Assembly (NCBI RefSeq): GCF_024172085.1
Contig: NZ_JAMZDZ010000001.1
Coordinates: 3,720,001-3,784,000 of the forward strand
Reading direction: 5' to 3'
Origin: Hamadaea flava
Lineage (GTDB): Bacteria > Actinomycetota > Actinomycetes > Mycobacteriales > Micromonosporaceae
DNA: 64,000 nucleotides
In this document: positions 8,935 to 60,787 of the stretch, piece by piece
How the letters are laid out: each line of letters opens with the position of its first letter
How positions within the stretch are numbered: position 1 is the first letter of the stretch
Program-made: the position numbers and the translations under genes
The notes under the pieces: generated by a model
The model's database searches: none
What the model saw: only the letters and a program-made list of their open reading frames with translations
What the model was told of the DNA's origin: nothing

Positions 8935-8998
8935 CATGCAGATCACGGTTTTGCAGGCTTCTCCGGCCGGGGAAGCCTGCAAAACCGTGATCTGCATG
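8935..8998. repeat. Perfect 27-bp-arm intergenic palindrome (family member 1)
   Basis: Arms 8935-8961 and 8972-8998 are exact reverse complements over 27 bp, separated by a 10-nt CCGGCCGG-containing loop. The outer part reads GCAGATCACGGTT. It lies 18 nt after the otsB-GH15 stop and 79 nt before the next gene on the same strand. It could act as a transcription terminator, but there is no T-tract, and the outer motif is shared with three other intergenic palindromes in this window (16867, 48516, 60727), which suggests a repeat family. Confidence 0.9.
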
Positions 8999-9076
8999 GT
9001 TGTGCTCGGCGGAAACCCGGTGCCACGCCAGCGAATTGCCACCCCGTAGCCACAAATCGCACATATCGTCACCAGA

Positions 9077-10228
9077 GTGCGTCGATACACCACTCTCCTG
9101 CTGACCTGTGCCCTAGCGCTCCCCGCGGCCTGCGCGGAGAGCCCGAGCAAGGGCACCGCCGACAACGCGGCACCGCCGGCCAGTGCCGCGAGTCCGAGCG
9201 CGAGCCCCACCAGCGGCAAACTCAACGTGTACGCCGACGCAGCGGCCAATCATCTGCGCGCGGATGTCAAGGCGGACAAGTCCTTGGTCTACGTGCCGAA
9301 CACGCAGAGCGACGATGTGGACGTCATCGATCCGGTCACCTACAAAGTGGTCGACCACTTCTACGGTGGTGCGGAACCGCAGCATGTCGTGCCGTCCTAC
9401 GACATGCGTACGCTCTATGTGACGTCGAGCCGGGTGCCGGGCGGGTCGGTGCTGCCGATCGATCCCCGAACGGGCAAGCCCGGGAAGATCATCCCGGTGC
9501 AGGACGTCTACAACCTCTATTTCACCCCAGGTGGCCAATACGCCTGGGTGGTGGCCGAGGCGTACCAACGGATCGACTTCTACGACCCGAAGTCGTGGAA
9601 GCTGGTGAAGTCGGCGAGTTTCCCCCAGTGCGAGGGGATCAACCACATGGACTTCACCGTGGACGGGAAGCTGGCCCTCGCGAGTTGCGAGTTCGCCAAC
9701 CGCATGGTGGTCATCGACGTCGCGACCGGCAAACTGGTCCGGGACCTGCCGCTGGATGTGGTGCCAGAGGGCATGCCGCAGGACACTCGGCTGCTGCCGG
9801 ACGGGTCGGCGTTCTTCACCGCCGACATGCACGCCAACGGGGTCTACGTCTTCGACGCTCAGGCGAATCGACGTACCGGTTTCATCCCCACCGGACAGGG
9901 CGCACACGGGATCTACTTCAGCCGGGACGGCAAGCGTGCCTTCGTCTCCAATCGCGACGAGGGCAGCATCTCGGTGCTCGACGTGGCGACCCGCAAGCCG
10001 ATCACGAAGTGGCACATCCCCGGCGGCGGCAGCCCTGACATGGGCGGGGTCTCGGCCGACGGGAAGACGTTGTGGCTGGCCGGGCGGTACCACAGCGAGG
10101 TGTACGCGATCGACGTGAACACCGGTAAGCTCCGCGCGCGCATCCCGGTGGGATCAGGTCCGCACGGGCTGCTCATCTGGCCGCAGCCAGGTCAGTACTC
10201 CCTGGGCCACACGGGCAACATCCGCTGA
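9077..10228 (+). CDS. YVTN-family beta-propeller lipoprotein
   Basis: A 383-residue exported protein. An N-terminal signal peptide ends at ALPAAC, a probable lipobox with the cysteine near residue 19. A Ser/Ala/Pro-rich linker follows, then a seven-bladed propeller of YVTN type with recurring SLVYVPNTQSDDVDVIDPVTYKVV-like blades, for example RAFVSNRDEGSISVLDVATRK and LWLAGRYHSEVYAIDVNTGK. Such proteins are surface-anchored scaffolds or carriers, and no catalytic residues are visible. The start is GTG 9077. It converges on the deacetylase gene with one base between the two stop codons. Confidence 0.8.
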   Translation: MRRYTTLLLTCALALPAACAESPSKGTADNAAPPASAASPSASPTSGKLNVYADAAANHLRADVKADKSLVYVPNTQSDDVDVIDPVTYKVVDHFYGGAEPQHVVPSYDMRTLYVTSSRVPGGSVLPIDPRTGKPGKIIPVQDVYNLYFTPGGQYAWVVAEAYQRIDFYDPKSWKLVKSASFPQCEGINHMDFTVDGKLALASCEFANRMVVIDVATGKLVRDLPLDVVPEGMPQDTRLLPDGSAFFTADMHANGVYVFDAQANRRTGFIPTGQGAHGIYFSRDGKRAFVSNRDEGSISVLDVATRKPITKWHIPGGGSPDMGGVSADGKTLWLAGRYHSEVYAIDVNTGKLRARIPVGSGPHGLLIWPQPGQYSLGHTGNIR

Positions 10229-10229
10229 G

Positions 10230-11150
10230 CTAGACCTGCCCCGCGTGCAGCGGCTGGCTGACGCCGTACAGCTTCGGCGGGTCGACGCCGGGCGGCAGCG
10301 CCTCCAGATGGAAGCGGGTCACCAGGTTCGGCAGCACCGAGTGCAGGGCGGTGACGGTGTTCTGCCGATTGCCACCACCGTCGTGCATCAACACGATCGA
10401 GCCCGGCCCGGTCTGGGTGATCACCGTCATCGCGATGCTGCGCGACGGTGGCTTCGCCCAGTCTCGCGGGTCCACCTGCCAGTGCAGCGGGCTCATCCCC
10501 AGGCGCGTCGCCGCCGCGACGACCGCCGGGGTCCAGGCTCCGCCCGGTTGGCGGAAGTAGGAGACCTTGGCCGCCGGGACCGCGCGGTGGATCGCCTCGT
10601 TGGTCCGCCTCAGGTCCGCGGTGATCGCGGCCTCGCTCCGCAGGCCCAGGCCCACGTCGTGCTGCCAGCTGTGATTGCACAACGTGTGGCCTTCGGCCAC
10701 GATCTCCCGGACCAATTGCGGGAACTCGGCCGCCATCAGGCCGATCACACAGAAGGTCGCCTTGATGTGGTACGCGCGGAGCAGCGACAGCACCTGTGGC
10801 GTCCATTGGGGGTCGGGCCCGTCGTCGAAGGTCAACGCGATGTCGGGATAGCCGGTGGTGACCCGGCTGCCGAACGGCCCCCGGGCTTCGCGGGGCAGCG
10901 GTGGCCGGCCCGGCCCGGTGATCGGCACCCGCCGGGGTGCGGGCACCGCCGCGAGTGCCGGCCCTTGGGCGACGCCGGCTTCCGTGCCTTCTTTGCTCAG
11001 CTGCTCAGCGGGTGCTGCACTGGAGCTGGGGGCGGCGTGCGGTTTGCTGCCGGTCATCCGGCCGAGGATGTGCCCGGTGCCGAGGAGGACGACGACTATG
11101 CCCGCCAGGCCGACCCACTTGATCGCCCCAAGTTTGCCTGTAGCACTCAC
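10230..11150 (-). CDS. Polysaccharide deacetylase (NodB/CE4), membrane-anchored
   Basis: A 306-residue protein with an N-terminal membrane segment (WVGLAGIVVVLLGTGHIL), a variable linker to about residue 95, then a NodB domain. Metal and catalytic motifs are TFDDGPD (motif 1), NHSWQHD (HxxxH, motif 2), YFRQPGGAW (motif 3) and a late VLMHDGGG (motif 5). CE4 enzymes remove N-acetyl groups from peptidoglycan or chitin-like polymers outside the membrane; the exact substrate cannot be read from sequence. GTG 11150 is the start. It lies 16 nt downstream of the cysG stop, so it could be transcribed with the cob operon, although the function differs. Confidence 0.88.
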   Translation of the reverse strand: MSATGKLGAIKWVGLAGIVVVLLGTGHILGRMTGSKPHAAPSSSAAPAEQLSKEGTEAGVAQGPALAAVPAPRRVPITGPGRPPLPREARGPFGSRVTTGYPDIALTFDDGPDPQWTPQVLSLLRAYHIKATFCVIGLMAAEFPQLVREIVAEGHTLCNHSWQHDVGLGLRSEAAITADLRRTNEAIHRAVPAAKVSYFRQPGGAWTPAVVAAATRLGMSPLHWQVDPRDWAKPPSRSIAMTVITQTGPGSIVLMHDGGGNRQNTVTALHSVLPNLVTRFHLEALPPGVDPPKLYGVSQPLHAGQV

Positions 11151-11166
11151 CCACTAGTTATATCGG

Positions 11167-12378
11167 CTAAATATCACCAAATGGTGTAGTTCCGGACATA
11201 GGCACGGAAACGACCTCACCGATGACGGTGATGACGGGCGTACGCAGATCGGCCGCCGCAGTGGCGATCTCGGCCAGCGGAGCGCGCACGACGACCTGCT
11301 GCGAGGTCGTGCCCTCCTGGATCGCCGCCGCCGGCGTAGCCGGATCACGCCCGGCCGCGATCAGGGTCGACGCGATCTCGGCCAGATGCCGGAGTCCCAT
11401 CAGCACGACGATCGTGCCGCGCGACCGGCCCAGCTCGGTCCAGTCGACGAGCGACTGCGCCGACGACGGGGCCAGGTGTCCGGAGACGACGGTGAACTCG
11501 TGCGTGACCCCGCGATGGGTGACCGGGATCCCGGCGACGGCGGGCACCGAGATCGCGCTGCTGACCCCGGGTACGACGACGACCGGTACGCCCGCCGCCG
11601 CGCAGGCCAGCGCCTCTTCCCCACCCCGGCCGAACACGAACGGGTCGCCGCCCTTGAGGCGTACGACGAATTTGCCGGCGAGCGCGCGATCGACGAGCAG
11701 TTCGTTGATGTGCTCCTGCGCCGCCGCCGCGCCGTAGGGCAGTTTGGCGACGTCGATCACCTCGACCTCAGGGCGCAGCTCGTCCAGCAGTACGCCGGGC
11801 GCGAGCCGGTCGGCGACCACCACGTCGGCCGCGTTGAGCAGCCGCCGTCCCTTGACCGTGATCAGCTCGGCGTCGCCTGGCCCGCCGCCGACGAGGGCCA
11901 CCGTCCCGGGCAGCCGATCGGTGTCCGTCGAGGACGCGAGCAGGGCCGCGATCCGGTCGCGCACGCTCATCGACAGCCGGGGCGAGCCCCCGCCGAGCAC
12001 CGCCACGGTCACCGGCCCGTGCCGGGTCACCGCCGGCGTCCACGCGGTCGCCGCGTGCCGGTCGTCGGCGCGTACGCAGAACACCCGCAAGTCCTCGGCG
12101 GCCGAACTCACCTGGGCGGCGGCCACCGGATCGTCCACGGCGACGTGCACCAGCCAAGCACCGTCCAAATCGGACGGCTCGAAGGCCCGGCCGCGCCACT
12201 CGAACCGGCCCGCGTCCCGCAACCCTTGCAGGGCAGGCGTCAGCTCAGGCGCGACGACGAGCAGATCGGCGCCCGCTTCCAGCAATGCCGGGATGCGACG
12301 GGTCGCGATGGCGCCACCGCCGACGACCACTACCCGGCGGCCGTCCAGCCGCAGGCCGAGGGGATACAACGAGCTCAT
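11167..12378 (-). CDS. cysG: Siroheme synthase / uroporphyrinogen-III C-methyltransferase
   Basis: A 403-residue two-domain protein. Residues 1-150 are a precorrin-2 dehydrogenase/ferrochelatase-type Rossmann domain (VVVVGGGAIATRRIPALLEAG). Residues about 160-400 are a SAM-dependent uroporphyrinogen-III methyltransferase with VALVGGGPGDAELITVKG, VVADRLAP, RLKGGDPFVFGRGGEE and IPVTHRGVTHEFTVVSGH. It supplies precorrin-2 for siroheme and/or cobalamin. The fused arrangement matches CysG; the central phosphoserine-loop region looks short. ATG 12378 overlaps the cobT stop by 4 nt (ATGA). It is the third gene of cobC-cobT-cysG. Confidence 0.93.
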   Translation of the reverse strand: MSSLYPLGLRLDGRRVVVVGGGAIATRRIPALLEAGADLLVVAPELTPALQGLRDAGRFEWRGRAFEPSDLDGAWLVHVAVDDPVAAAQVSSAAEDLRVFCVRADDRHAATAWTPAVTRHGPVTVAVLGGGSPRLSMSVRDRIAALLASSTDTDRLPGTVALVGGGPGDAELITVKGRRLLNAADVVVADRLAPGVLLDELRPEVEVIDVAKLPYGAAAAQEHINELLVDRALAGKFVVRLKGGDPFVFGRGGEEALACAAAGVPVVVVPGVSSAISVPAVAGIPVTHRGVTHEFTVVSGHLAPSSAQSLVDWTELGRSRGTIVVLMGLRHLAEIASTLIAAGRDPATPAAAIQEGTTSQQVVVRAPLAEIATAAADLRTPVITVIGEVVSVPMSGTTPFGDI

Positions 12379-13433
12379 TTCTCCGTGACACCAGCCGAGT
12401 CGAAGGTGGCCACCTCGTGCAGTACGCGTACCGCCGAGGCGACGATGGGCAGCGCGAGCAGGGCGCCGGTCCCCTCGCCGAGCCGCAGGCCGAGATCGAG
12501 CAGCGGATCGAGATCGAGGTGCGCGAGGGCGACCGCCGCCCCCGGCTCGACCGAGAGGTGGCCGGCGATCAGCGCGCTCGCGGCGTCCGGCGCTAGCTCG
12601 ACCGCCGCGACAGCCGCCGAGCAGGCGATGACACCGTCCAGAATCACCGGTACGCGACGCGCCGCCCCGCCGAGGATGAGCCCGGCGAGCGCGGCGTGTT
12701 CGAGGCCGCCCACCGCCGCCAGTACGCCGATCGGGTCGGCCGGATCCGGCCGGTGCAGGTCCAGCGCCTTGCGGATCACGGCGACCTTCTTGGTGTGGGT
12801 GTCGCTGTCGATGCCCGTCCCGAGGCCGGTCACACGGCCGGGGTCGGCGCCCGTGAACGCCGAGATCAGCGCGGCGGCCGGCGTGGTGTTCGCGATGCCC
12901 ATGTCGCCGGTGACGAGCACCCGCGTCCCGCCGTCGACCAGCTGATGCGCGACGGTGATGCCGACCTCGATCGCCCGCTCGGTCTCCTCGCGGGTGAGCG
13001 CGGGCTCGACGGTGAAGTCCCGGGTGCCGGGGCGTACCTTGGCCGCCACGAGCTTGGCCTCGTCCGGCAGCGTCGCCGCGACACCGACGTCCACCACGGT
13101 GACCTGCGCGCCGGTCTGCCGGGCGAACGCGTTGACCACCGCGCCACCGGCGACGAAGTTGGCGACCATCTGGGCCGTGACCTCCTGCGGCCACGGCGTG
13201 ACGCCCTGAGCGTGGACGCCGTGGTCGCCCGCGAAGATCGCGACCGTCGCGGGATCCAGCAACGGTGGCGGGCAGACCCCGGCCAGGCCGCTGAGCCGGA
13301 TCGACAGCTCCTCCAGGGTGCCCAGCGACCCGGTCGGCTTGGTCAGGCGACCGTGGCGGGCCCGGGCGGCGTCCATCGCGGACACGTCGAGCGGTCCGAT
13401 CGCACCGACCGTCCGAGCCAGCAACTCACCCAT
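12375..13433 (-). CDS. cobT: Nicotinate-nucleotide:dimethylbenzimidazole phosphoribosyltransferase
   Basis: A protein of about 352 residues. It transfers phosphoribose from nicotinate mononucleotide to 5,6-dimethylbenzimidazole, making the lower-ligand nucleotide of cobalamin. CobT motifs visible are RLTKPTGSLGTLEELSIRLSGL, VAIFAGDHGVHAQGVTPWPQEVTAQMVANF, TGDMGIANTTPAAALISAF and GLGTGIDSDTHTKK, plus a C-terminal LRLGEGTGALLALPIV with the catalytic-type glutamate. ATG 13433 has AGGAGA at ideal spacing. ATG 13439, two codons earlier, forms an ATGA overlap with the cobC stop and is the alternative start. Both fit a coupled operon. Confidence 0.95.
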   Translation of the reverse strand: MGELLARTVGAIGPLDVSAMDAARARHGRLTKPTGSLGTLEELSIRLSGLAGVCPPPLLDPATVAIFAGDHGVHAQGVTPWPQEVTAQMVANFVAGGAVVNAFARQTGAQVTVVDVGVAATLPDEAKLVAAKVRPGTRDFTVEPALTREETERAIEVGITVAHQLVDGGTRVLVTGDMGIANTTPAAALISAFTGADPGRVTGLGTGIDSDTHTKKVAVIRKALDLHRPDPADPIGVLAAVGGLEHAALAGLILGGAARRVPVILDGVIACSAAVAAVELAPDAASALIAGHLSVEPGAAVALAHLDLDPLLDLGLRLGEGTGALLALPIVASAVRVLHEVATFDSAGVTEK

Positions 13434-13435
13434 AG

Positions 13436-14500: not shown

Positions 14501-14593
14501 GTCGTTAGGAGATCACAGGGTGTTGTCGCGAAGGCGACGGAGGGCTGCTTTTCCTCGTGCCGTTTGTCGCTTTCAATCATCTCTAAGCGGGAC

Positions 14594-16843
14594 ATGTCCT
14601 ACCTTGGACTGGTGATAAAGCGCACCCTCGCCGCGACCGGCCGCATGACACCGATTCTGCGAGCCGGGCTCATCTCCGGCGTCATCGTGGCCGCGGTGAC
14701 GTATCCTCTGGCCGCCGTCGGCGGGCTGGGGGTGAAGTCCGGATTCGACTGGTATCAGGCATTGCCCGCGGAGTTGACGGTGCAACCGCCCGCCCAGACC
14801 ACCTACGTCTACGCCAACGATGGCAAGACGCTACTGACCACGTTCTACGAGGAACATCGCAAGTACACGCCGATCAGCGAGATGTCGGAGAACATCCAGC
14901 ACGCCATCGTGGCGAGCGAGGACGCCCGCTTCTACGAGCACAACGGCGTGGACGTCAAAGGCATCGCCCGGGCGTTCGTGGCGAACCACAACTCGGGCCA
15001 GGTGACCCAGGGCGCGTCGACGCTGACCATGCAGTACGTCCGGGCGACCCTGCGCGACGGCGCGCAGACCCCGGCCGAGGTGCAGCAGGCGACCGAGCAG
15101 ACCAGCGGCCGTAAGATCCGCGAGATCCGGCTGGCGATCGCGCTCGAGAAGAAGATGTCCAAGCAGGAGATCCTGGAGCGCTACCTGAACGTGGCCTACT
15201 TCGGGCACCGGGCGTACGGCGTCTTCGCGGCGTCGCAGATCTTCTTCTCGAAGACGCCGAAGACGCTGACCCCGACCGAGGCGGCGACGCTGGCCGGCCT
15301 GGTGCAGGCGCCCTCGCTCTACGATCCGGCGGCCTCCAACCAGCGGGCCGCGACCGAACGCCGCAACTACGTGCTGCAGCGGATGTCCGATCTCGGCTAT
15401 CTGTCCGCGGACGAGGCGAAACAGGCGGCCAGTCAGCCGATCAAGCTGAAGATCACCAACCCGCCGAACGACTGCATCTCGATCGCGCCGAAGCTGAACA
15501 GCATGGGGTACTTCTGCGACTTCTTCAAGTCGTGGTGGATGTCGCAGCCGGCGTTCGGCAACAACCCGGCCGAACGCGAGGCCAAACTGCGTCGCGGCGG
15601 CTACCGCGTGGTGACCTCCATCGATCCCAAGGTGCAGGCGGCGGCACAGAAGAACGTGCTCGCCAACGTCAGCAAGAGCAACCCGTACGCCCACGGCGTC
15701 GTGCTCGTGCAACCGCGTACCGGCATGGTCAAGGCGATGGGCCTGAACCGCACGTACTCCTTGGACCAGAAGAACAACGGCACCAACACCGACTGGAACA
15801 AGGCGGGCAAGATCCCGGGCACCTACCCGAACACGGTGAACCCGCTCAACGGCGGCGGTTTCAACGGCGCGGGCTACCAGGCGGGTTCGACGTTCAAGAT
15901 GTTCACCCTGCTGGCGGCGTTGCAGGCCGGCTTCAAGATGAACCAGTCGTACTACTCACCGCAGCGCCTGGTCTCGAAGTACTGGGCGGGCTGGGGCGAA
16001 CGCGGCTCGTGCGCGGGCGGCCGGTGGTGCCCGACGAACGCCAGCGGCTCGATGACCGGTACGCAGAACATGTGGACCGGCTTCGGGAAGTCCGTGAACA
16101 CGTACTTCGTGCAACTGGAGCAGGCAGTCGGCTCCGACGCGGTCGTACGCATGGCGGAAAGCCTCGGACTGTCCTGGCACAACGACATCGACGACATGAT
16201 GGCGACCTACCCGCGGAGCAAGACGTGGGGCGCGTTCACCCTGGGCGTCGCCGACACCACGCCGCTGGAGATGGCCACGGCGTACGCCGCGGTCGCCGGG
16301 GACGGCCTCTATTGCGAGGCGCTTCCGGTGCAGTCGATCACCAACCCGGACGGGACAGCGACGACCTGGACCAACGAACAGGGCCAGACCGTCGAGGTCG
16401 CCGCACCGCGCTGCAAGCAGGTCGTACGCCCGGAGGTCGCCCACGCGGCCACCGACGCCGCCCGCTGCGTCACCGGATATGGGGCCTCGAAGGGCGGCTG
16501 CGGAAGCTGGAACACCACGGGCGGCAGCGTCTACAACATGATCGGCCGTCCGATCGCGGGCAAGACCGGTACCACCGACGACACCCGCGCGGCCTGGTTC
16601 GTGGGCTTCACGCCCGAGTACGCCGCGGCGAGCTTCATGGCCGACCCGGACAATCCGTTCCACGCCGTCGGCGACTGGAACTACAACATTCCACTTCAGG
16701 CGGTGGCCTGGACGCTGCGGGACGCGTTGAAGGGCCAGCCGATCCGGTACTTCACGCCGCCGCCGACATCGATCCTGGGCAAGGGGACGTACGTGGCCGC
16801 GCCACAGGACTCCGCGCCCAAGAAGAAGAACCGCCGCCGCTAG
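14594..16843 (+). CDS. Class A penicillin-binding protein (transglycosylase/transpeptidase)
   Basis: A 749-residue bifunctional peptidoglycan synthase. It has a short cytoplasmic tail and one membrane segment (AGLISGVIVAAVTYPLAAV). The GT51 domain carries catalytic motifs SEDARFYEHNGVDVKGIARAF and GASTLTMQYVR. The transpeptidase domain has SxxK at GSTFKMF (about residue 437), SxN at GKSVNTYF and KTG at AGKTGTTDD. A short basic tail KKKNRRR ends the protein, with no PASTA repeats. ATG 14594 is chosen; GTG 14612 six codons later is a possible start, and neither has a strong ribosome site. Extracellular cysteines (GSCAGGRWCPT, GGCGSW) may form disulfides. Confidence 0.95.
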   Translation: MSYLGLVIKRTLAATGRMTPILRAGLISGVIVAAVTYPLAAVGGLGVKSGFDWYQALPAELTVQPPAQTTYVYANDGKTLLTTFYEEHRKYTPISEMSENIQHAIVASEDARFYEHNGVDVKGIARAFVANHNSGQVTQGASTLTMQYVRATLRDGAQTPAEVQQATEQTSGRKIREIRLAIALEKKMSKQEILERYLNVAYFGHRAYGVFAASQIFFSKTPKTLTPTEAATLAGLVQAPSLYDPAASNQRAATERRNYVLQRMSDLGYLSADEAKQAASQPIKLKITNPPNDCISIAPKLNSMGYFCDFFKSWWMSQPAFGNNPAEREAKLRRGGYRVVTSIDPKVQAAAQKNVLANVSKSNPYAHGVVLVQPRTGMVKAMGLNRTYSLDQKNNGTNTDWNKAGKIPGTYPNTVNPLNGGGFNGAGYQAGSTFKMFTLLAALQAGFKMNQSYYSPQRLVSKYWAGWGERGSCAGGRWCPTNASGSMTGTQNMWTGFGKSVNTYFVQLEQAVGSDAVVRMAESLGLSWHNDIDDMMATYPRSKTWGAFTLGVADTTPLEMATAYAAVAGDGLYCEALPVQSITNPDGTATTWTNEQGQTVEVAAPRCKQVVRPEVAHAATDAARCVTGYGASKGGCGSWNTTGGSVYNMIGRPIAGKTGTTDDTRAAWFVGFTPEYAAASFMADPDNPFHAVGDWNYNIPLQAVAWTLRDALKGQPIRYFTPPPTSILGKGTYVAAPQDSAPKKKNRRR

Positions 16844-16866
16844 GTTTTCGACGCCTTTGGGCACTG

Positions 16867-16919
16867 GATCAGGGTTCTGGGTCGAATCTTGCACAAAGAT
16901 TCGACCCAGAACCCTGATC
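16867..16919. repeat. Perfect 24-bp-arm intergenic palindrome (family member 2)
   Basis: Arms 16867-16890 and 16896-16919 match perfectly over 24 bp with a 5-nt loop (GCACA); flanking G-T wobble pairs could extend the stem. The outer arm begins GATCAGGGTT. It sits between the convergent PBP (+) and GNAT (-) genes, so it could work as a bidirectional terminator, though it has no T-tract. It belongs to the same family as 8935-8998. Confidence 0.9.
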
Positions 16920-16949
16920 TGCTCGGGAAGCCTGACTTCTCGGTACGCC

Positions 16950-17516: not shown

Positions 17517-17665
17517 GCTGACTCCGATCGCTCGGCGAGCCCGGGTTGCCCAGGGCCAAAGGGCACCTTACCCAATGTTCTGTCGCGATGCCGCTCTTCG
17601 TGCTGGACGCCCGCTGACAAGATGCTCCCAATCGGTGATCGCCCGCACATGGGTACGCTCACCTG

Positions 17666-19025: not shown

Positions 19026-19031
19026 GCGAGT

Positions 19032-26300: not shown

Positions 26301-26760
26301 GCAGCCCCCGGCTGCCCGCGAAGAACATCCGGTCGACCGCCCGGCGTACCTTCTCGACGCCGAGCGGCGACCCGGACCCGGTCACCATGACGACATCCCG
26401 CGCCGGTACGCCGATCACCAACTCGCCCGGCACCTGGGCCGCCATTCGCTCCCAGAACTCGTCGAGCAGCACGGCTGACGACTCCCACCCGCCGAATGAC
26501 ACCATCAACACCGGTGGCCGCCCGTCCACCTGAACCTCAGCCGTCCATTTGGTCAGCGATTCAAAGGCGTATCGGCGAAGATCGTGCGGATGCAGCCGGA
26601 TCTGGCGCAGATCTCGCCACGTCACGAGCCCCTGATACGGCGGCCCTGAGGCATAGCCGACCGCGAGTCCGCCCAGGAACTCGTCGAGGACTATGTCCTC
26701 CTCGTCCTGGGGATCCAGCTCGTCGAGCGAGACCAGCACCGGCAGAAATGTGGTGCTCAT
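26230..26760 (-). CDS. Cytosolic protein of unknown function
   Basis: A protein of about 176 residues beginning MSTTFLPVLVSLDELDPQDEEDIVLDEFLGG. It continues with WRDLRQIRLHPHDLRRYAFESLTKWTAEVQVDGRPPVLMVSFGGWESSAVLLDEFWERMAAQVPGELVIGVPARDVVMVTG. This resembles actinobacterial proteins related to the DUF1444 type, but I am not sure of the family. ATG 26760 is chosen over an upstream in-frame start at 26805, because the extra residues look unlike a coding N-terminus. It overlaps the hydrolase 3' end by 71 bp in antisense, an unusually long convergent overlap. Confidence 0.65.
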   Translation of the reverse strand: MSTTFLPVLVSLDELDPQDEEDIVLDEFLGGLAVGYASGPPYQGLVTWRDLRQIRLHPHDLRRYAFESLTKWTAEVQVDGRPPVLMVSFGGWESSAVLLDEFWERMAAQVPGELVIGVPARDVVMVTGSGSPLGVEKVRRAVDRMFFAGSRGLLSRDLLVWRRGWEIWRHYPPHPH

Positions 26761-26860
26761 CACGTCCACGAGCGTTAACCTACTCCCGCGTACGCACACC
26801 TCCAATAGGCCGTCCAGCGGGTGGGTTTCAACATCGCTTTAGGTACCCTGTGATCTGCAC

Positions 26861-26933
26861 GCGCCCGTAGCTCAGCGGATAGAGCAGCTGCCTTCTAAGC
26901 AGTTGGCCGCAGGTTCGAATCCTGCCGGGCGCA
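26861..26933 (+). tRNA. tRNA-Arg (anticodon UCU)
   Basis: A 73-nt cloverleaf. Acceptor stem GCGCCCG pairs with CGGGCGC, and the D-arm reads CTCAGCGGATAGAGC. The anticodon stem GCTGC/GCAGT encloses loop CTTCTAA (anticodon TCT), and the T-arm contains GGTTCGAATCC. The discriminator is A and the CCA end is not encoded. It reads AGA codons, which are rare in this GC-rich genome. It is a potential integration site, but no integrase or direct repeat is seen beside it. Confidence 0.97.
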
Positions 26934-26973
26934 CCTATACGAATGCCCACGCCGGGAACTCCCACAGCCTTAT

Positions 26974-27936
26974 CTACTGGAGAATGTTGACCGCCCGGGC
27001 GACTACCAGGCCGAGGATTGCCAGCGACGTGATCGCCTGCACCGTCATTGCGAGCTTGGCCCACAGCGCGAGCGGCATCACATCCGTGGGACTGAACGCG
27101 GTCGCGTTCGTGAACCCGAGATAGAGGTAGTCGAGGAATTTCGGCCGCCAGCCCGGCCCGGACACCTGGGAGTTCAGGTGCTGAGGAAAGGCCAGGTCCC
27201 GAAGCCGGGCGGGCGAGACCGCGCGAGCGGACGCGCCACCACCGTCGAGCACCCAGTACAGGAACGCGAACACGATCACGGTATAGATCCACACCCCGAA
27301 GCCCACGCCCAGCAGAACCCCGGGCGAGTTCGTCTCCGGGCCGCCGCTGATCAAATCGTCGATGAGGCGGAAGGTCACACCTGCCCCGTTGGCCACGAGT
27401 ATGGTCGCGATCCCGATCGTCAGAATGCGCCCGAGGAGTGCGCGACGCCCGAACCGTACGTGGTCGACGATGACGTGCGCACCGGCAAGAGCCACGAGAA
27501 TCGCCGGTACGATCCAATCCGGCCCGAGGCTGAATCGCGAGGGCAGGGCGAACTGCACGCCGATCGCCACGGCCAGCGTCAACATCATCGGCCACGGACT
27601 TTCCGGCCGCGCGTTCGACCACCACACCCGGATGCTGGTCTCGGCCGGCGAGCCGATTGGGCTCCCATCGGCCGGGTCGGTCCTTGCGACAAGATCGCGC
27701 GCGGCGTTCAGGGTGTCGGAGACCTGCTCCGGACGGCTTATCGCGGGCAGCCGTGCCTCGATCCACGCGCGTTCGTCATCGGTGTGCACGTCCGCCGGTA
27801 CCGCTGCCGCGCGGGCCAACCTCTCGTATTGACGAGCCCACACGCCCGTGACTGGCTGGAGTAGCGGTAGCTCGACGGTCACCCACTCGCCGGTCGTATG
27901 AAGGCTGATCTCGGCGCGCGGATCGAGTGCGGCCAT
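26974..27936 (-). CDS. Membrane protein with ion-channel-like pore segment
   Basis: A 320-residue protein. The first 115 residues are soluble and contain GEWVTVELPLLQPVTGVWARQYERLARAA. About six hydrophobic segments follow, and the last two bracket the re-entrant-like segment YLYLGFTNATAFSPTDVMPLALWAKLAMTVQAITSLAILGLVVARAVN. This resembles the pore-loop helix pair of two-TM ion-channel domains, but with TNATAFSPTD where K+ channels have the TxGYG filter. ATG 27936 has GGAGG about 9 nt upstream. It is 47 nt from the LCP gene stop, on the same strand. The function is unknown. Confidence 0.7.
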   Translation of the reverse strand: MAALDPRAEISLHTTGEWVTVELPLLQPVTGVWARQYERLARAAAVPADVHTDDERAWIEARLPAISRPEQVSDTLNAARDLVARTDPADGSPIGSPAETSIRVWWSNARPESPWPMMLTLAVAIGVQFALPSRFSLGPDWIVPAILVALAGAHVIVDHVRFGRRALLGRILTIGIATILVANGAGVTFRLIDDLISGGPETNSPGVLLGVGFGVWIYTVIVFAFLYWVLDGGGASARAVSPARLRDLAFPQHLNSQVSGPGWRPKFLDYLYLGFTNATAFSPTDVMPLALWAKLAMTVQAITSLAILGLVVARAVNILQ

Positions 27937-46459: not shown

Positions 46460-48502
46460 ATGGGTCTCGAGTTCCGTCTTCTGGGCCCGTTCGAGGTGCG
46501 CGACGACGACCGGCCGGTGCCGATCAACGGCGTGAAACCCCGGCAGTTGCTGGCGAGCCTGCTCCTGCACCCCGACCGGCCGGTCTCGGTGGACCGCCTG
46601 ATCGAGGTGCTCTGGCCGATCGACCCGCCGCGCTCGGCCGCGGCCAACATCCAGACCTACATCAGCGGGCTGCGGACCTGTCTCGGCGACGACCACGTCG
46701 TGCGCTACCCGCCCGGGTACGCCGTCGTCATCGGACCGGCCGACCTGGACGTGGCGAGCTTCCTCCGGGAGACCGATGAGGCGATCCGGTTGCGCCGCCT
46801 GGGTTATCTGGCCGACGCGCAGCGTACGCTCGAATCCGCGCTCGCCCGCTGGCGTGGTTCCCCGCTGGCCGACCTGCCGCCGAGTCCACTGTGGCAAGTC
46901 GAGCTGGACCAGCTGACCGAGCGCCGTCTCGCCGCTCTCTCCGAGCTGCTGGATCTGCGCATCCGCCTCGGCGACCCGGATCGGGCCGTCGCCGAGTTGC
47001 GGGGTCTGACCGCCGAACACCCGCTGCGGGAAGGTCTGTGGGCGCTACTCATCCGCGCGCTGGTCGCGGCCGGTCGGCGAGCCGACGCCCTCACCGTGTA
47101 CGCCGAAGTCCGCCACACCCTCGCCGAGGAGCTGGGCGTCGGCCCGGGTCCGGAGTTGCAGCGCCTGCACAACGATCTGCTCGCCGCGGACGCCACTCCG
47201 ATCGCGTCCCACCCGGTCGGCCAGCAGCTGCCCGCTGACGCCGCGATCGTGTTGCGCGGGCTGGCCGCGTTCGGCGACGCGACGGTTCCGGCCTGGTTCG
47301 CCGGGGCGCTGCTGGAGGACGGCGAGGAGCAGATGGACCGCCTCGTCTCTGCCCGGCTGGCGGTGGACGCCGGCGTCGACGCGCTCGGGCAACGGCGGTA
47401 TCGCGTACCGGTGCTGGTCCGGATGCTCGCCGACGCCCAGTCCGGCGACTGGCCGCAGCCGGACGAGGCCGGGCTGGTCCGCGTCCTGGGCGGCCTGCTC
47501 AGCCTCGCCGAGGACGCCGGGCACGCGTTGCCGCACAGCCCGTTCGGTCCCGGCCAATCGGTCGCGCCCCGCTGGAAGCCGCCGATGACCGAAGTGGACG
47601 ATCCGGTCGCGTGGTTCGTCACCGAGCAGGACATCCTGCTCACCGCCATCGAGGTCGCCGGTCGGCTCAACCGCCCGGACTTCGCCTGGGAACTGGCCCT
47701 GGCCACCGTCCCGTGGTGTGACCTGGCCGGGCATCCGGAGGTCTGGGAGACCGGGCACCAGACCGCGCTGGCCATCTGCCGTCGCCTCGACGATCAGCTC
47801 GGCGTCGCCGTCACCCTGCGCGGCCTCGGCCAGCTGCATCTCTACCGGGACGAGTACGCCCAGGCCGACGCCGCCTTCGGCCGGGCGAGACTGCTGTTCG
47901 CCCAGCTCGGGCAGCCCGCCGGGGTGGCCGCCGCGCTCTCCGGGCTCGGCGCGGTGCATCGCGTACGCGGGGAGCTGGATCTCGCGGTGGATTACTACAG
48001 CCGTGCGCTGGAGGCGTTCGTGGAATGCGCCGAACCCTCCGGCGAGGCGTACGCCCGCGGCGCGATCGGGCAGGTGTGGCTCGCCCGGGGCAACCTCGAC
48101 CGGGCGCAGGAATGGCTGGAGAGCGCGCTGAACCTCGCCGAGGTGATCGGCGACCGGCATCGCACCGCGCATCTTCGCCAGGCGCTCGGTTCGGTGGCCC
48201 GCCGGGAGGGCCGCGAACAGGATGCCCGGGGACTGCTCGACCAGGCCCTCGCCGGGTTCACGACGATCGGCGACATCCACGGCGAGGCGTACGCCCTGGT
48301 GGAACTGGGCCGATTGGAGCAGACTCCGGCCGAGGCGGCCGACCGGCTGACCCGGGCGCTGCACATCTACCAGCGGCTCGGCGATCGGCGGGCGGAGGCG
48401 GACACGGCCGAACGGCTCGGTCAGCTGCACGGCGCCGCCGGTCAGCGGGAGCTGGCCGCCGCGTACCTCGACGAGGCGCGGCGGCTCCGCGCCCAGCTCT
48501 GA
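46460..48502 (+). CDS. SARP/BTAD-family transcriptional regulator with TPR C-terminus
   Basis: A 680-residue regulator. Residues 1-100 are an OmpR-type winged helix (GLEFRLLGPFEVRDDDRPVPINGVKPRQLLASLLLHPDRPVSVDRLIEVLWP), and 100-250 form the BTAD domain (WRGSPLADLPPSPLWQVELDQL, ADALTVYAEVRHTLAEELGVGPGPELQRLH). There is no P-loop/NB-ARC ATPase such as AfsR has. Residues about 470-680 hold TPR repeats (AVTLRGLGQLHLYRDEYAQADAAFGRARLLFAQLG, YARGAIGQVWLARGNLDRAQEWLESALNLAEVIGD). SARPs activate secondary metabolism or other genes. The start is ATG 46460, with direct repeats upstream. Confidence 0.92.
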   Translation: MGLEFRLLGPFEVRDDDRPVPINGVKPRQLLASLLLHPDRPVSVDRLIEVLWPIDPPRSAAANIQTYISGLRTCLGDDHVVRYPPGYAVVIGPADLDVASFLRETDEAIRLRRLGYLADAQRTLESALARWRGSPLADLPPSPLWQVELDQLTERRLAALSELLDLRIRLGDPDRAVAELRGLTAEHPLREGLWALLIRALVAAGRRADALTVYAEVRHTLAEELGVGPGPELQRLHNDLLAADATPIASHPVGQQLPADAAIVLRGLAAFGDATVPAWFAGALLEDGEEQMDRLVSARLAVDAGVDALGQRRYRVPVLVRMLADAQSGDWPQPDEAGLVRVLGGLLSLAEDAGHALPHSPFGPGQSVAPRWKPPMTEVDDPVAWFVTEQDILLTAIEVAGRLNRPDFAWELALATVPWCDLAGHPEVWETGHQTALAICRRLDDQLGVAVTLRGLGQLHLYRDEYAQADAAFGRARLLFAQLGQPAGVAAALSGLGAVHRVRGELDLAVDYYSRALEAFVECAEPSGEAYARGAIGQVWLARGNLDRAQEWLESALNLAEVIGDRHRTAHLRQALGSVARREGREQDARGLLDQALAGFTTIGDIHGEAYALVELGRLEQTPAEAADRLTRALHIYQRLGDRRAEADTAERLGQLHGAAGQRELAAAYLDEARRLRAQL

Positions 48503-48515
48503 CCCCGCTGATCTC

Positions 48516-48576
48516 TGCGGATCACGGTTACGCAGGGCTAAAACCGCCTCGGAAAGCATGCGTAACCGTGATCCGC
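48516..48576. repeat. Intergenic palindrome (family member 3), 18-bp arms
   Basis: Arms 48517-48534 and 48559-48576 are perfect complements over 18 bp (GCGGATCACGGTTACGCA on the left), with a 24-nt interior. It lies 14 nt after the SARP stop and 22 nt before the end of the converging amidase gene. Family with 60727-60787: the first 20 bases fit GCGGATCAYGGWTACGCAGG in both. Confidence 0.9.
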
Positions 48577-48597
48577 CGGGAAGACGCGGCGGAAGAA

Positions 48598-51433: not shown

Positions 51434-51699
51434 GAAGTACGCGGCGCGTCCAGGACGGACATGCGCTCCCGATACTCCTGCTCGTTGATCTCACCCCGGG
51501 CGTAGCGCTGGGCGAGGATGACGCGCGGGTCGCTGTCGCCGCCGTAGCGCCAGTGGCCCGGGTAGCCGTGACCGTTGCGCCAGTGCCGCCGCCAGAACAG
51601 ACCGCGGATGACGAAGAAGAGCAGAATCCAGAACGGGATCCAGAGCCACGGCCCGAAGAACCACCAGCCGCCCCAGTAACCGGCGTGTGCGAGAACCAT
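51430..51699 (-). CDS. SHOCT-domain small membrane protein
   Basis: An 89-residue protein. Residues 8-36 are a Trp/Phe-rich membrane segment (YWGGWWFFGPWLWIPFWILLFFVIRGLFW). A basic GHGYPGHWRYGG linker and a C-terminal SHOCT motif follow: DPRVILAQRYARGEINEQEYRERMSVLD. SHOCT domains are oligomerisation modules; here it sits just upstream of, and overlaps, the sensor kinase, so it may be an accessory of the two-component system. ATG 51699 has GGAGGG 5 nt upstream. Confidence 0.88.
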   Translation of the reverse strand: MVLAHAGYWGGWWFFGPWLWIPFWILLFFVIRGLFWRRHWRNGHGYPGHWRYGGDSDPRVILAQRYARGEINEQEYRERMSVLDAPRTS

Positions 51700-51822
51700 T
51701 TTTCCCTCCTCATCTCGTCCTTCGAGGGTGGTTCTTCCGCGCCGGGATTACGTCGTACGCGCAGCGACACTTGCGCCTACTCCCCCGGGAGTACGCACGG
51801 CACGGCGTCTCGCGCGAGCGGC

Positions 51823-52806: not shown

Positions 52807-52893
52807 CCTCGCCCTCCCCCCTCGCGTCCGGCGCGTGAACCCCCTGGTTATGCGACCGATGCCTGCAGGCCGAGGATAGCGATCTATGCCAAC

Positions 52894-53811: not shown

Positions 53812-53830
53812 GCCCTTAGTCTAGGCAGGC

Positions 53831-57536: not shown

Positions 57537-60500
57537 CGGGCGCCTCCATCGATCAGGGCCTGGCGGGCCAGGCGGCGAGCCGCGTACACGAGGACGGCGG
57601 CCAGCAGGGCGGCGGCGGCCAACGCGGTGAGGGCGAACGGGATGGTGGACAAGCCGTCCGGCGGGGCGAGCACCTTCCACCCGTCGGAGAACACTTCCGG
57701 TTTCGGCACCGGCAGCCACGCCGTCGCGGCGGCGGCGGCCAGCCCGGCCAGGACGGCGACCGCGGTGGGGACCGCGTACCCGAGCAGGCTGATCCGCCGC
57801 ACCAGCCGGGCGTTCAACCCCTGGCGGCGCAACGCGGCGAGCTCGGCCGACCGCGTACGCCGTTCGACACTGGCCAGCAGCAGCAAGGCGACGGCCGAGA
57901 TCAGCACGCCGAGCCCGAAGACGCCGAGCTGGAAGCGGCGTACGCCGGCCGGCCCCTGCCGGTTCAGCGCGCCCCGTTCGGCGTCCACCGTCGAGCCGCT
58001 CTGGACGTTCACGCCGCGCTGCTTCAGCGCGGCGACGAAGGCGTCGTCCCCGGCGTCGGCCAGCCAGACCTCGAGCTGCTCGTTGGCGACGGACACCCCG
58101 ACGACCCGGTCGAAGTCGGCCAGGTCGACGATCGCGCCGTCCTCCGGGAAGCGCGGCAGTTTCGCCGTCGAGCCGACGATGTCGACGTCCGCCGGATCGG
58201 TCCCGGACAGTTCCAGCTGGGCCCGGTTGTTGCGCCCGTTGCGGCCGACGAGTCCGGTGGTCAACGCGGCGAGCGTCGGCTGAGCCGGGTACGCCCGCAT
58301 CTCGCAGGTGCCGCGGAGGTGGTTGGGGTCGTCGCAGCCGGGCGGCGCGGTCAGCGTCAGGCCCTCGGCCGACCCGTCCAGGATCGGGCCGAGCACGCGG
58401 GTGTTGGAGCTGCCCGTCCAGTGCTGCCGGTCGCCCAGCTTCGCCGCGTCCAGCAGCTCACGACCGTCCTGCCGGACCCCGTGGAGGCTGACTCGCGTAC
58501 CCCAGAGGACGGCCGCCTGAGGGGAACCTTCCCGGGCAGCGGACAGGCCGAGCCACATCAGGCGGCAGCCACCGGCGCACTCACTGACGTCGACCCGATA
58601 GTCGTGCCGCCCCTCCTGCAACGGGCCGAACCGCGCGACGACCCGGCCGCCGGTGGCGGAGACCAGCGCCGCCTGGGCATAGACGTCCCCGGTGATCTCG
58701 GTCGGCGGCGGGACCGGCAGATCGGCCGGCGGGAAGTCCGGGTTCTCCGACTTCACCGACTGCGTCCGGTCGCCGAGGGCGTACACCTTGCGGTCGAAGG
58801 ACGCGGTGAGCTGGAGGGCGCCGTCGGCGACCTGAACCGCATCGTCCACAGCGGACGGTGTACGCGGCAGCGCGCCGTACTCCGGCCGCCAGTCGGCGAC
58901 CTCGGCCAGCCGGGCGGTGTCCACCGCCAGCAGTTGCGGCGAGAAGCCGACCGTGCCGGGGAAGTAGCTGACGGCCATCCCGCGGGTGCCGGCCGGATCG
59001 ATCTCGCGTACGGCGTCGAGCAGGTTCTTCCGGCTGACCCCGTCGACGCGCAGCACCCGGTCCGCGCCGAGCTCCTGTTCGGCTCGGGCGGTGACGGCCT
59101 GCTCACCCCGGACCATGTCGCCCATCGCGGTGGTGAGCCCGGCGACCGCGACCACGAGCAGGGTGACCACCCAGCGCAGGGTCGGCCGCCGCCGCGCGGA
59201 CAGCCCGGCGACCGCAACGGTCAGCCGACCCGAACGCATCGCGGCCGAACCGGCCCGGCCGGAAAGCCACAGGACGAACCGGGCGGCCACCAGACCGACC
59301 GCGATCGCCAGCAGCGCGGGGACCATGGTCGCGGTGACCGACCCGCTCCGCAGCGACTCGACCGTGGTGAGCTGCCAGACGCCGACCGCGAACAACGTGA
59401 CGATGACGAGTTCGGCCGCGTCGACCGCCCGGCCGCGTACGCGCGGCGGCACGTTGCGCAGCAACTCGACGACCGGCGACCGCAGTGACCGGAGTTCGGA
59501 GAGCCAGGCCAACGCGAGAGCGGCCAGCAGCACCCCGCCGAACAGCTCGGCGCTCTGGGTGAGCGCCAGGTCGAGGTCGTCCGGCCAGACGACCGGCCCG
59601 ATGACGGCCCGCACCCAGGCGTACCCGGCGGCCGCGCCCAGCACCGCCCCGCCGAGCATCACGCCGACGGTCTGCCCCATCGTCGCGGTCCACACCCGCC
59701 AGCGGCGTACGCCCCGGAGCTTCACCAAAGCGAGGTCGGTACGCCGGGCGGCGACTGTCTGGCGTACCACGACGAGCAGGGCGAACCAGGCCAGCAGCAC
59801 GAATCGGCCGGTGGCGGCGACGATGCCCGCGCTCATCTCGTTCTGCACCGTGTTGATGACGGCCGGCACCTCACCGGCCGAGGAGATCCACGAAAGCGTC
59901 CAGCTCGACTCGCCGGCGTCCAGCGCGCCCAGGCGACCGCCCAGCCCCGGGGTGTACGCCCCCAGCCCCAGTTCGATGTCGACGGTGGTCGTCGGCCGGG
60001 CGGTCGGCAGGTGGTCGAAGGTCGCCGGCGCGACCAGGAACGGGTCGATGGTCCGGGAGTCGTGGTCCCAGACGCCGGACCAGTAGCGGTCGTCGGCGCG
60101 GACGGGCCGGTAGAGGCCGACGACGGTCAGCTCGGCGACCTCGCTGGAGTCGTCGATCTTCATGGCGAACTTGTCGCCGACGGCCAGGCCCAGCGAACGG
60201 GCGACGCCGTCGCTGATGAGGATCTGGCCCGCCTCGGTCGGGCAGGCGCCCTCGACGACGGCGTGCTCGCAGGCGCCCTGTCGCGTGACGAGCGCGCCCT
60301 TGGCTCCCGCGCCCGACCGCAGGATCGGCCCGGTCAGCCGCAGGCCGGTGATGGGCGCCGTGTGATCGGTGCCGGTCGCCTTCTCGACGACCTTCATCAC
60401 CTTGTCCACCGGCACCCGCCCGTTCGGCAGGTCGGAGCTACGCGGGCTCCCGCTGAGGTGCACCATGCGCTGTTCGGTCGAGGCTCCCGCGACGATGCGC

Positions 60501-60637
60501 GCGGCGAGCTGCTCAGCGGAGGCGAAGACGTACCACGGCGCGGCCGCGGCTGTCCCCACGGCCAACGCGGTCAGGACGCCAACGGTGAGCGCCTGCGCGC
60601 GGCGGCCCCACACCGCGTCCCAGAGGAGTCGGATCAC
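57533..60637 (-). CDS. FtsX-like ABC permease with large extracellular domain (2)
   Basis: A 1034-residue membrane protein similar in layout to its neighbour: an N-terminal helix (RAQALTVGVLTALAVGTAAAAPWYVF), an exported domain, central helices (GRFVLLAWFALLVVVRQTVAARRTDLALVKLRG is the FtsX-type block), another exported domain of about 330 residues and C-terminal helices. Cys pairs GACEHAVVEGAC and SECAGGC occur outside. Paired with the 54666 permease and one ATPase it forms a three-gene system, probably a heterodimer. GTG 60637 is the start. A palindrome family member lies 90 bp upstream, and icmA is divergent. Confidence 0.88.
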   Translation of the reverse strand: MIRLLWDAVWGRRAQALTVGVLTALAVGTAAAAPWYVFASAEQLAARIVAGASTEQRMVHLSGSPRSSDLPNGRVPVDKVMKVVEKATGTDHTAPITGLRLTGPILRSGAGAKGALVTRQGACEHAVVEGACPTEAGQILISDGVARSLGLAVGDKFAMKIDDSSEVAELTVVGLYRPVRADDRYWSGVWDHDSRTIDPFLVAPATFDHLPTARPTTTVDIELGLGAYTPGLGGRLGALDAGESSWTLSWISSAGEVPAVINTVQNEMSAGIVAATGRFVLLAWFALLVVVRQTVAARRTDLALVKLRGVRRWRVWTATMGQTVGVMLGGAVLGAAAGYAWVRAVIGPVVWPDDLDLALTQSAELFGGVLLAALALAWLSELRSLRSPVVELLRNVPPRVRGRAVDAAELVIVTLFAVGVWQLTTVESLRSGSVTATMVPALLAIAVGLVAARFVLWLSGRAGSAAMRSGRLTVAVAGLSARRRPTLRWVVTLLVVAVAGLTTAMGDMVRGEQAVTARAEQELGADRVLRVDGVSRKNLLDAVREIDPAGTRGMAVSYFPGTVGFSPQLLAVDTARLAEVADWRPEYGALPRTPSAVDDAVQVADGALQLTASFDRKVYALGDRTQSVKSENPDFPPADLPVPPPTEITGDVYAQAALVSATGGRVVARFGPLQEGRHDYRVDVSECAGGCRLMWLGLSAAREGSPQAAVLWGTRVSLHGVRQDGRELLDAAKLGDRQHWTGSSNTRVLGPILDGSAEGLTLTAPPGCDDPNHLRGTCEMRAYPAQPTLAALTTGLVGRNGRNNRAQLELSGTDPADVDIVGSTAKLPRFPEDGAIVDLADFDRVVGVSVANEQLEVWLADAGDDAFVAALKQRGVNVQSGSTVDAERGALNRQGPAGVRRFQLGVFGLGVLISAVALLLLASVERRTRSAELAALRRQGLNARLVRRISLLGYAVPTAVAVLAGLAAAAATAWLPVPKPEVFSDGWKVLAPPDGLSTIPFALTALAAAALLAAVLVYAARRLARQALIDGGAR

Positions 60638-60726
60638 GCGGGAAGGACAGCCTTGCCGCGCCGATCCTTTGTCAGCGCGAGGTGATCGTTACCTTTTCGT
60701 GATCCACGTTGGGTGGCCCCGTTACC

Positions 60727-60787
60727 TGCGGATCATGGATACGCAGGTGAAACCGTCCCACGATCGCCGGCAGATCCATGATCCGCA
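60727..60787. repeat. Intergenic palindrome (family member 4), 14-bp arms, between divergent genes
   Basis: Arms 60727-60740 and 60774-60787 pair perfectly over 14 bp (TGCGGATCATGGAT on the left) around a 33-nt interior. It has the same 61-bp length as 48516-48576, and 18 of its first 20 bases from GCGGATCA are shared. Unlike the others it lies between divergent genes (ABC permease start 60637, icmA start 60873), where a terminator would have no use. Confidence 0.85.

What the first reader, a model, noticed from the sequence alone, without database searches (positions are those of the whole stretch)
8935..60787. Family of four near-perfect ~60-bp intergenic palindromes
Palindromes at 8935-8998 (27-bp arms), 16867-16919 (24), 48516-48576 (18) and 60727-60787 (14) all start with an outer (G/A)GATCA-N-GG motif. 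Inner bases differ between copies but stay paired, which points to compensatory change and selection for the fold. The copies at 48.5 and 60.7 kb are clearly homologous (GCGGATCAYGGWTACGCAGG). Four copies in 64 kb would be dense if the rate holds genome-wide. This suggests a REP/MITE-like repeat or a structured RNA or DNA site. Whether it has been described is unknown to me.
Basis: partly seen in the sequence, partly recalled or inferred. Interest (0 to 1): 0.8.

Follow-up and report, generated by a model that had tools for sequence, protein, structure and literature searches.

The report
GATC-capped palindromic repeats at gene ends
The four palindromes belong to a large family of short mirror-image DNA repeats, hundreds of copies in this genome, that mostly sit just after genes, in places where other species of the genus often have ordinary transcription stop signals.

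Summary
All four palindromes are present and match GATCANGG...CCNTGATC. That pattern occurs 371 times in the 8.86-Mb genome, against 0 for its backward control. The three other genus genomes searched have 211, 323 and 379.

Several unrelated interiors share only the GATCANGG ends. Other genera have their own interiors under the same ends. In a palindrome scan that assumed no sequence, GATCA was the commonest outer 5-mer in four of five genomes.

The elements lie mostly 3' of genes. Convergent gaps are enriched in all five genomes (odds ratio 4.7-10.2; p=0.054 in the smallest sample). Where an element occupies a convergent gap, another strong hairpin is uncommon (16/76 against 77/112). Orthologous gaps exchange elements for canonical hairpins or for elements with another interior.

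A RAYT in the genus, target-site duplications and a sense-strand G·U bias were not found. Compensatory change shows in the outer stem of type A only. In G052 and G034 the motif repeats at 20 and 19 bp.

Best reading: RAYT-less, REP-like dispersed palindromes serving as bidirectional gene-end elements; the end motif may be read as DNA by an unknown protein.

The parts
8935..8998 (.). Copy 1, type A, 64 bp with paired flanks; core 8941-8992. Tandem gap after the gene ending at 8916 (+).
   Evidence: The orthologous gap in G003 and G001 holds no GATC element; both show a GC-rich hairpin there (read by eye from the alignment; the G003 hairpin is also listed).
16867..16919 (.). Copy 2, type B, 53 bp, 24-bp perfect arms. 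Convergent gap between genes ending at 16843 (+) and 16950 (-).
   Evidence: The same gap holds a type-A element in G003 and G002 and a third type in G001 (G003 and G001 also).
48512..48581 (.). Copy 3, type A, core 48520-48573. Convergent gap between genes ending at 48502 (+) and 48598 (-).
   Evidence: Homologous element in G003; G001 has a 13-bp gap with none.
60727..60787 (.). Copy 4, type A-like, core 60731-60783. Divergent gap between starts at 60637 (-) and 60873 (+).
   Evidence: Homologous element in G003, type B in G002 at nearly the same place, none in G001.
62559..62596 (.). Comparison feature: canonical 18-bp GC-rich hairpin in the convergent gap 62550-62603; the same gap holds a 75-bp GATC element in G001 and a GATCATGAACCTAGGG palindrome in G003.

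Best explanation
These are members of a multi-family, apparently non-autonomous palindromic repeat that multiplies within actinomycete lineages and is kept mainly at the 3' ends of genes, where it serves as a two-way gene-end element instead of a canonical hairpin terminator. Shown: copy number, shared GATCANGG ends with interchangeable interiors, two-arm architecture, 3'-end and convergent placement, rarity of a second strong hairpin in the same convergent gap, and empty or differently filled orthologous sites. Inferred: that it ends or blocks transcription, that new copies come from an unidentified trans-acting activity or gene conversion (no RAYT found), and that the ends are read as DNA by a protein.
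For: 371 copies against 0 control; 211-379 in the four genus genomes, 15 of 121 genomes with 40 or more copies, five more with 22-35, the other 101 with 0-18. 89 of 92 family arms in 0.66 Mb of G000 have a TGATC partner. GATCA is in the outer 20 nt of 55/88, 27/41 and 21/22 intergenic palindromes of G000, G034 and G091 found without a sequence assumption; in G001 it is second (14/27) to GATCC (16/27). Gaps with an element, convergent against the rest: G000 38/139 against 42/593, G001 15/48 against 8/187, G091 19/40 against 13/153, G034 8/35 against 13/227, G003 4/17 against 4/65. Tandem copies lie nearer the upstream stop in 31/34 (G000) and 10/11 (G091). Other strong hairpin (-20 kcal/mol or better) in convergent gaps of 25-400 bp: 16/76 with an element, 77/112 without, p=8.5e-11; length-matched backgrounds 0.12 and 0.30. 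Orthologous gaps where one species has the element and others a canonical hairpin: those starting at window positions -1198, 19026 and 62550; copy 1.
Against: No transcript data. Only 7 of 251 3' flanks have four or more T in 8 nt, so the U-tract of an intrinsic terminator is missing. The same placement would result if insertions elsewhere were simply removed by selection, and it is the known placement of REPs (PMC3733652). No significant sense-strand G.U bias. 8 of 80 gaps with elements in G000 are divergent, copy 4 among them. In G034 tandem copies are not nearer the stop (9/15). In a first, smaller count G000 alone had a second strong hairpin in 0.42 of 26 convergent gaps with an element (0.78 of 46 without). 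Joint occupancy of orthologous gaps by G000 and G001 (1 of 103) is about what chance gives. No mobilising protein found.
Confidence: 0.5

Rival explanations
1. Selfish MITE/REPIN-like elements with no host function; placement reflects removal from promoters and genes, and old terminators are lost or overlooked nearby.
For: Lineage-specific interiors and labile copy number within genera (genus g13: 0, 52 and 88; g32: 60 and 727). Type B and G034 arms vary independently of each other. Placement matches REPs in print.
Against: Second strong hairpin near background level in occupied convergent gaps; joined flanks do not reform a hairpin clearly more than shuffled joins (-4.97 against -4.21, sd 0.39); no RAYT in the genus, no target-site duplication detected.
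Confidence: 0.3
2. Binding array for an unknown DNA-binding protein that reads GATCANGG; the bound protein blocks RNA polymerase from both sides or organises the chromosome.
For: Half-sites recur on one strand at 20 bp (18 pairs in 110 kb of G052), 19 bp (42 in 400 kb of G034) and 20 bp (14 in 1.04 Mb of G000); whole-genome forward counts 467 (G034), 67 (G052) and 29 (G000), controls 0 in these three. Spacers mostly differ. No RNA-type wobble bias.
Against: Arrays are common in only two of the 14 genomes searched; G091 has none though it has 83 palindromes. Interiors are palindromic in the families seen, which a pure half-site array does not need. Some arrays have identical spacers, as from tandem duplication. 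No protein known.
Confidence: 0.15
3. Structured RNA elements (3'-UTR stabilisers, RNase III sites or sRNAs) selected for the fold of the transcript.
For: 3'-end placement; pair-coupled outer stem in type A: Cramer V 0.73, 0.43, 0.49, 0.39 and 0.86 at pairs 6, 9, 11, 12 and 15, same-arm values 0.15-0.5.
Against: G.T against A.C 96 to 84 in 71 tandem copies (an earlier count on 36 copies gave 65 to 50); type B and G034 show no coupling; no Rfam match.
Confidence: 0.05

Closest known systems
REPs with GTAG or CGTC tags and REPINs (RAYT-associated)
   Same: High-copy intergenic palindromes, species-specific families, mainly between convergent or unidirectional genes and close to 3' ends (PMC3733652: abstract and sections 6 and 15 seen); REPIN-like two-arm unit (PMC3116915: abstract and outline only).
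   Different: Longer (mostly 50-76 bp), capped by GATCANGG on both arms and paired to the end; GTAG next to an end in 1 of 191 elements; CGTC common only in G034 (35 of 66 ends; 10 of 316 ends in the other four genomes); no RAYT in the genus. The word beginnings actinobacter, Streptomyces, Salinispora, Frankia, Mycobacter and GATC do not occur in the main text of PMC3733652.
Canonical intrinsic terminators of the same genomes
   Same: Same position between convergent genes; alternate with the elements at orthologous gaps.
   Different: No shared sequence, shorter GC-rich stems; the elements share GATCANGG ends and lack a T-run.
MITEs
   Same: Short, dispersed, inverted-repeat ends, lineage-specific amplification.
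   Different: No target-site duplication detected; a parent element was looked for only by a solo-arm scan and none showed.
DNA uptake sequences arranged as inverted terminators (recalled, no call)
   Same: Short motif in high copy, often inverted between convergent genes.
   Different: Here single family arms are rare (3 of 92 without partner).

Membership tests
RAYT-associated REP/REPIN | RAYT (Y1_Tnp, PF01797) gene in the genome | tested here: not met
   0 matches in G000-G003; 10 of 73 genomes have one; of 11 high-copy genomes searched only G011, two short matches. G052, G059, G065 and G071 were not among the 73.
RAYT-associated REP/REPIN | Unpaired GTAG tag at one end | tested here: not met
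   GTAG within 10 nt of an end in 1 of 191 elements.
CGTC-tagged REP | Unpaired CGTC tag, 8-9 bp stem, CCA tail | tested here: not met
   CGTC next to the ends is common only in G034 (35 of 66 ends, 12 of 33 elements on both arms, where it pairs with GACG); stems longer than 8-9 bp. CCA tail not tested.
REP-like repeat (works like) | High copy, intergenic, 3'-end and convergent placement | tested here: met
MITE | Target-site duplication | tested here: not met
   In 79 elements the only excess direct repeats lie in the first few nt outside GATC, in the palindromic flank, when families are pooled (16 against 8.0 expected); within families there is little excess (type A 9 against 5.6). The exact ends of the element are not known.
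MITE | Parent autonomous element with the same ends | tested here: inconclusive
   3 of 92 arms without partner in 0.66 Mb of G000, none looking like one end of a longer element; the rest of the genome was not scanned for this.
Intrinsic terminator | GC-rich hairpin followed by a T-run | tested here: not met
   7 of 251 3' flanks with four or more T in 8 nt.
Intrinsic terminator (works like) | Ends transcription in vivo | not testable with these tools
   No transcript data held.
Known RNA family | Match to an Rfam model | tested here: not met
   At gathering thresholds only a tRNA in the window and none in seven further loci of 140 kb in all.

The most novel reading that the evidence does not exclude
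GATCANGG is the binding site of an unidentified actinomycete protein. Inverted and 19-20-bp-spaced sites form a bidirectional roadblock between convergent genes, a protein-DNA gene-end system that replaces hairpin terminators and spreads as a dispersed palindromic repeat whose interior is free to change between lineages.
Probability: 0.15. Interest if true: 0.88.

Novelty: new variant of a known kind. Interest (0 to 1): 0.62.

Why it matters
The REP families in the survey read here lie mainly in Proteobacteria, and GTAG REPs are tied to RAYT transposases (PMC3733652, abstract). Here is a REP-like system in actinomycetes with no RAYT in the genus, whose constant part is an 8-bp cap and whose interior turns over between species, sometimes at one orthologous place. 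Its complementary occurrence with canonical hairpins offers a direct test of whether a dispersed repeat has taken over transcription end sites across a genome, and the 19-20-bp arrays point to a specific, findable DNA-binding protein.

Tried and rejected
RAYT search: absent from the genus. Target-site duplications: no excess beyond the palindromic flank itself. Insertion into pre-existing hairpins: joined flanks fold slightly better than shuffled joins (-4.97 against -4.21, sd 0.39), with 11 of 78 gaining 12 kcal/mol or more, some of which could be split hairpins; not the rule. RNA-type wobble bias: not significant. Rfam: none at gathering thresholds. Phage or plasmid carriage: three viral-contig patterns (a type-A arm, the type-B core, a G091-like core) gave 0; copy 2 against plasmids and copy 1 against phages gave no match; the other copies were not tried. 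Conservation by interior alone: search too loose, discarded in favour. G001 arm statistics (n=6) too few. Paper searches by words and by motif letters showed, in the titles and abstract beginnings listed, no description of such repeats in actinomycetes; several listings were capped (15 of 209, 20 of 216, 12 of 29), and most subscription journals are not held, so earlier description cannot be excluded. The own gene caller is approximate; 11 of 95 elements in G000 fall inside called genes. Structure prediction was not used. Transposases other than PF01797 were not searched for.

Sampling: the G091 and G052 pieces and 16 of the G000 pieces (L071, L072, L089-L092, L103-L112) were chosen to hold listed elements, so occupancy rates are inflated there; the contrast between gap types is within the same pieces. 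L112 was left out of the counts and later because it overlaps L071. Counts include GATC-ended palindromes that pass a looser rule, not only the strict pattern.
Full report
Observation. The four palindromes were read and measured; they are four of the first five inverted-repeat pairs in the tool's ranking. All four, and nothing else in the window, match GATCANGG...CCNTGATC. The window is bases 3,720,001-3,784,000 of an 8,864,410-base contig, and this pattern occurs 371 times in it, against 0 for the pattern read backwards. Only part of the 371 was listed with sequence; statistics below use the copies read.

Families. In the copies of the own genome read (80 distinct strict elements, 57 of them 53 bp) there are at least four kinds of interior: A (37), B (22), C (13), D (3), with 5 mixed. 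Copies 1, 3 and 4 of the window are type A, copy 2 is type B. The relatives carry other interiors under the same ends: a 75-bp nested form in G001, beside a 66-bp GATCTTGCGCGAATG form that lacks the ANGG, a 57-bp form in G034, a 55-bp form in G091, which lies in another family of the order, and a 54-bp form in G052. To avoid circularity, intergenic palindromes were also collected without any sequence assumption: GATCA was then the commonest 5-mer of their outer 20 nt in G000 (55/88), G003 (7/14), G034 (27/41) and G091 (21/22); in G001 GATCC led (16/27) and GATCA came second (14/27) (some pieces had been chosen because they hold elements). When one arm was fixed and the other placed by inner pairing only, GATCA and GG of the other arm were 1.00 conserved in types A (n=43) and B (n=33) and in G034 (n=33), and 0.95-1.00 in G091 (n=22) (arms whose partner failed the inner-pairing threshold are not counted there, and in G034 several other positions are 1.00 too).

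Range. Of 121 genomes (own and relatives), 15 have 40 or more matches: the four genomes of the genus (211, 323, 371, 379), G034 727, G040 160, G065 142, G012 105, G052 88, G091 83, G011 71, G026 63, G059 60, G071 52 and G030 43; five more have 22-35 and the other 101 have 0-18. In 296 genomes drawn from the class, 11 including G000 have 20 or more. In 24 genomes reached through named loci of the gene at 60873-62549, counts are 2-20. Most of the low-count matches that were listed are of varied length and not palindromic inside, as chance hits would be. One named Micromonospora (L150, M. antibiotica) has a GATCATGG palindrome just after that gene (30 loci looked at). That gene reads like a methylmalonyl-CoA mutase (recognised by eye; no family search was run).

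Placement. With an own gene caller, gaps holding an element are 38/139 convergent, 34/424 tandem and 8/169 divergent in G000; 15/48, 8/134 and 0/53 in G001; 4/17, 3/46 and 1/19 in G003; 8/35, 11/181 and 2/46 in G034; 19/40, 11/111 and 2/42 in G091. Convergent against the rest gives odds ratios of 4.9, 10.2, 4.7, 4.9 and 9.7, with p=5e-10, 9e-7, 0.054, 0.003 and 1e-7. Tandem copies are nearer the upstream stop in 31/34 in G000, 5/8 in G001, 3/3 in G003, 9/15 in G034 and 10/11 in G091. This is the placement reported for REPs (PMC3733652; abstract and sections 6 and 15 seen).

Relation to terminators. In convergent gaps of 25-400 bp, a hairpin of -20 kcal/mol or better outside the element is found in 16/76 gaps with an element and 77/112 without (p=8.5e-11); length-matched pieces of divergent gaps give 0.12 and 0.30. 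At -15 kcal/mol the counts are 21/76 and 97/112, backgrounds 0.25 and 0.60. Gaps with an element are thus near background and gaps without are well above it. Earlier, smaller counts gave 0.24 of 38 against 0.74 of 68 and, for G000 alone without a length limit, 0.42 of 26 against 0.78 of 46. Orthologous gaps show the exchange directly: after window position 19026 G000 and G001 have GC-rich hairpins and G003 a type-B element; after 62550 G000 has a canonical hairpin, G001 a 75-bp GATC element and G003 a GATCATGAACC palindrome; in the gap that starts 1,198 bases left of the window G000 and G003 have hairpins followed by a short T-run on the gene's strand and G001 has an element (hairpins read by eye). 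At the site of copy 1 the G003 and G001 sequences show GC-rich hairpins instead (by eye). At the site of copy 2 three different GATC palindromes occur, in G000, in G003 and G002, and in G001; at copy 4 G000 and G003 have type-A elements and G002 a type-B one. Not every gap without the element has a hairpin: the copy-3 gap of G001 is 13 bp. Counted over comparable gaps, G000 and G001 share 1, with 4 in G000 only, 6 in G001 only and 92 in neither (n=103); G000 and G003 share 4, with 2 and 3 in one only and 82 in neither (n=91). Sharing with G001 is no more than chance would give.

What argues against a plain intrinsic terminator or RNA element: only 7 of 251 downstream flanks are T-rich, and in 71 tandem copies read in the sense strand G.T and A.C mismatches are 96 and 84 (p=0.41). 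An earlier count on 36 tandem copies gave 65 and 50. The Rfam library gives, at gathering thresholds, no match for the palindromes in the window or in seven further loci of 140 kb in all.

Compensation. Pooled over families, arms pair far better than shuffled arms because families differ. Within type B there is no excess (0.744 against 0.748), within type A there is (0.684 against 0.605). In type A the excess sits in the outer stem: paired positions 6, 9, 11, 12 and 15 are coupled across the arms with V of 0.73, 0.43, 0.49, 0.39 and 0.86, while positions within one arm give 0.15-0.5; inner halves combine nearly freely (6 of 44 identical, 3.1 expected). G034 shows no coupling (V 0.31 paired, 0.36 same-arm). 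In G091 paired columns are somewhat more associated than same-arm ones (0.63 against 0.50), but Watson-Crick pairing at variable positions is below shuffled, which an off-centre interior may explain. In the 60 closest comparisons of copies 234 stem differences are one-sided and 23 two-sided. So copies look like decaying descendants of palindromic founders, with maintenance of the outer stem in one family.

Mobility. Copy number differs widely within genera (g13: 0, 88 and 52; g32: 727 and 60). Orthologous empty sites exist. Family arms rarely occur alone (89 of 92 with partner in 0.66 Mb). No target-site duplication is seen, and no RAYT is present in the genus. In G034 copies cluster in twos and threes 194-417 bp apart, as REP clusters do. 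The agent of spread is unknown.

Arrays. In G052 extra GATCAAGG half-sites continue outward from several palindromes with a 20-bp period (8 of the 11 neighbourhoods shown have at least one extra half-site on either side), with spacers that mostly differ from one another. Same-strand spacings peak at 20 bp in G052 (18), 19 bp in G034 (42) and 20 bp in G000 (14, with 12 each at 32 and 52). Whole-genome forward counts of two half-sites 10-14 bp apart are 467 in G034, 67 in G052, 29 in G000, 23 in G003, 16 in G002, 12 in G001 and 0-9 in the other eight genomes, with controls of 0 except 1 on the reverse strand of G001. Some arrays have identical spacers, as from recent duplication. Spacing by about two helical turns with free spacers is what a DNA-binding protein would leave; this is inference.

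Conclusion. No RAYT was found in the genus. The most likely role is a bidirectional gene-end element that takes the place of canonical hairpins; the molecular means (hairpin or bound protein) and the means of spread remain open.

Noticed in passing
G000 contig about 1.68-2.28 Mb: No strict element is listed in about 0.6 Mb, and two 20-kb samples there (1.85 and 2.05 Mb) have none, while flanking regions have many. Possibly a younger or accessory region.
   Followed up: partly
L065:3756-3821 (G001:C9:163756-163821) and others in G001 contig C9: A separate 66-bp GATCTTGCGCGAATG palindrome family in G001, also between genes.
   Followed up: partly
L143, after the stop at about 4689: Micromonospora haikouensis has an AGGAAGGGCCCCTTCCT double palindrome just after the gene whose convergent gap holds a hairpin in G000.
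   Followed up: no
L218, L225, L228, L229, L231, L235: In G034 the 57-bp elements cluster in twos and threes, some as near-identical tandem units with identical flanks.
   Followed up: no
G052:C1:1821544-1821803: GATCACGG/GATCATGG repeats at 18 bp or multiples of it, spacer nearly constant; may be repeats inside a gene rather than the gene-end arrays.
   Followed up: no
Site of window copy 1 in G003 (C121, about 26550-27480): An insertion of roughly 700-850 bp lies between the two genes in G003 but not in G000 or G001.
   Followed up: no
G002 contig C680, first bases: This contig begins next to the copy-3 site, and G002 is in about 830 contigs; the palindromes may break short-read assemblies.
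   Followed up: no
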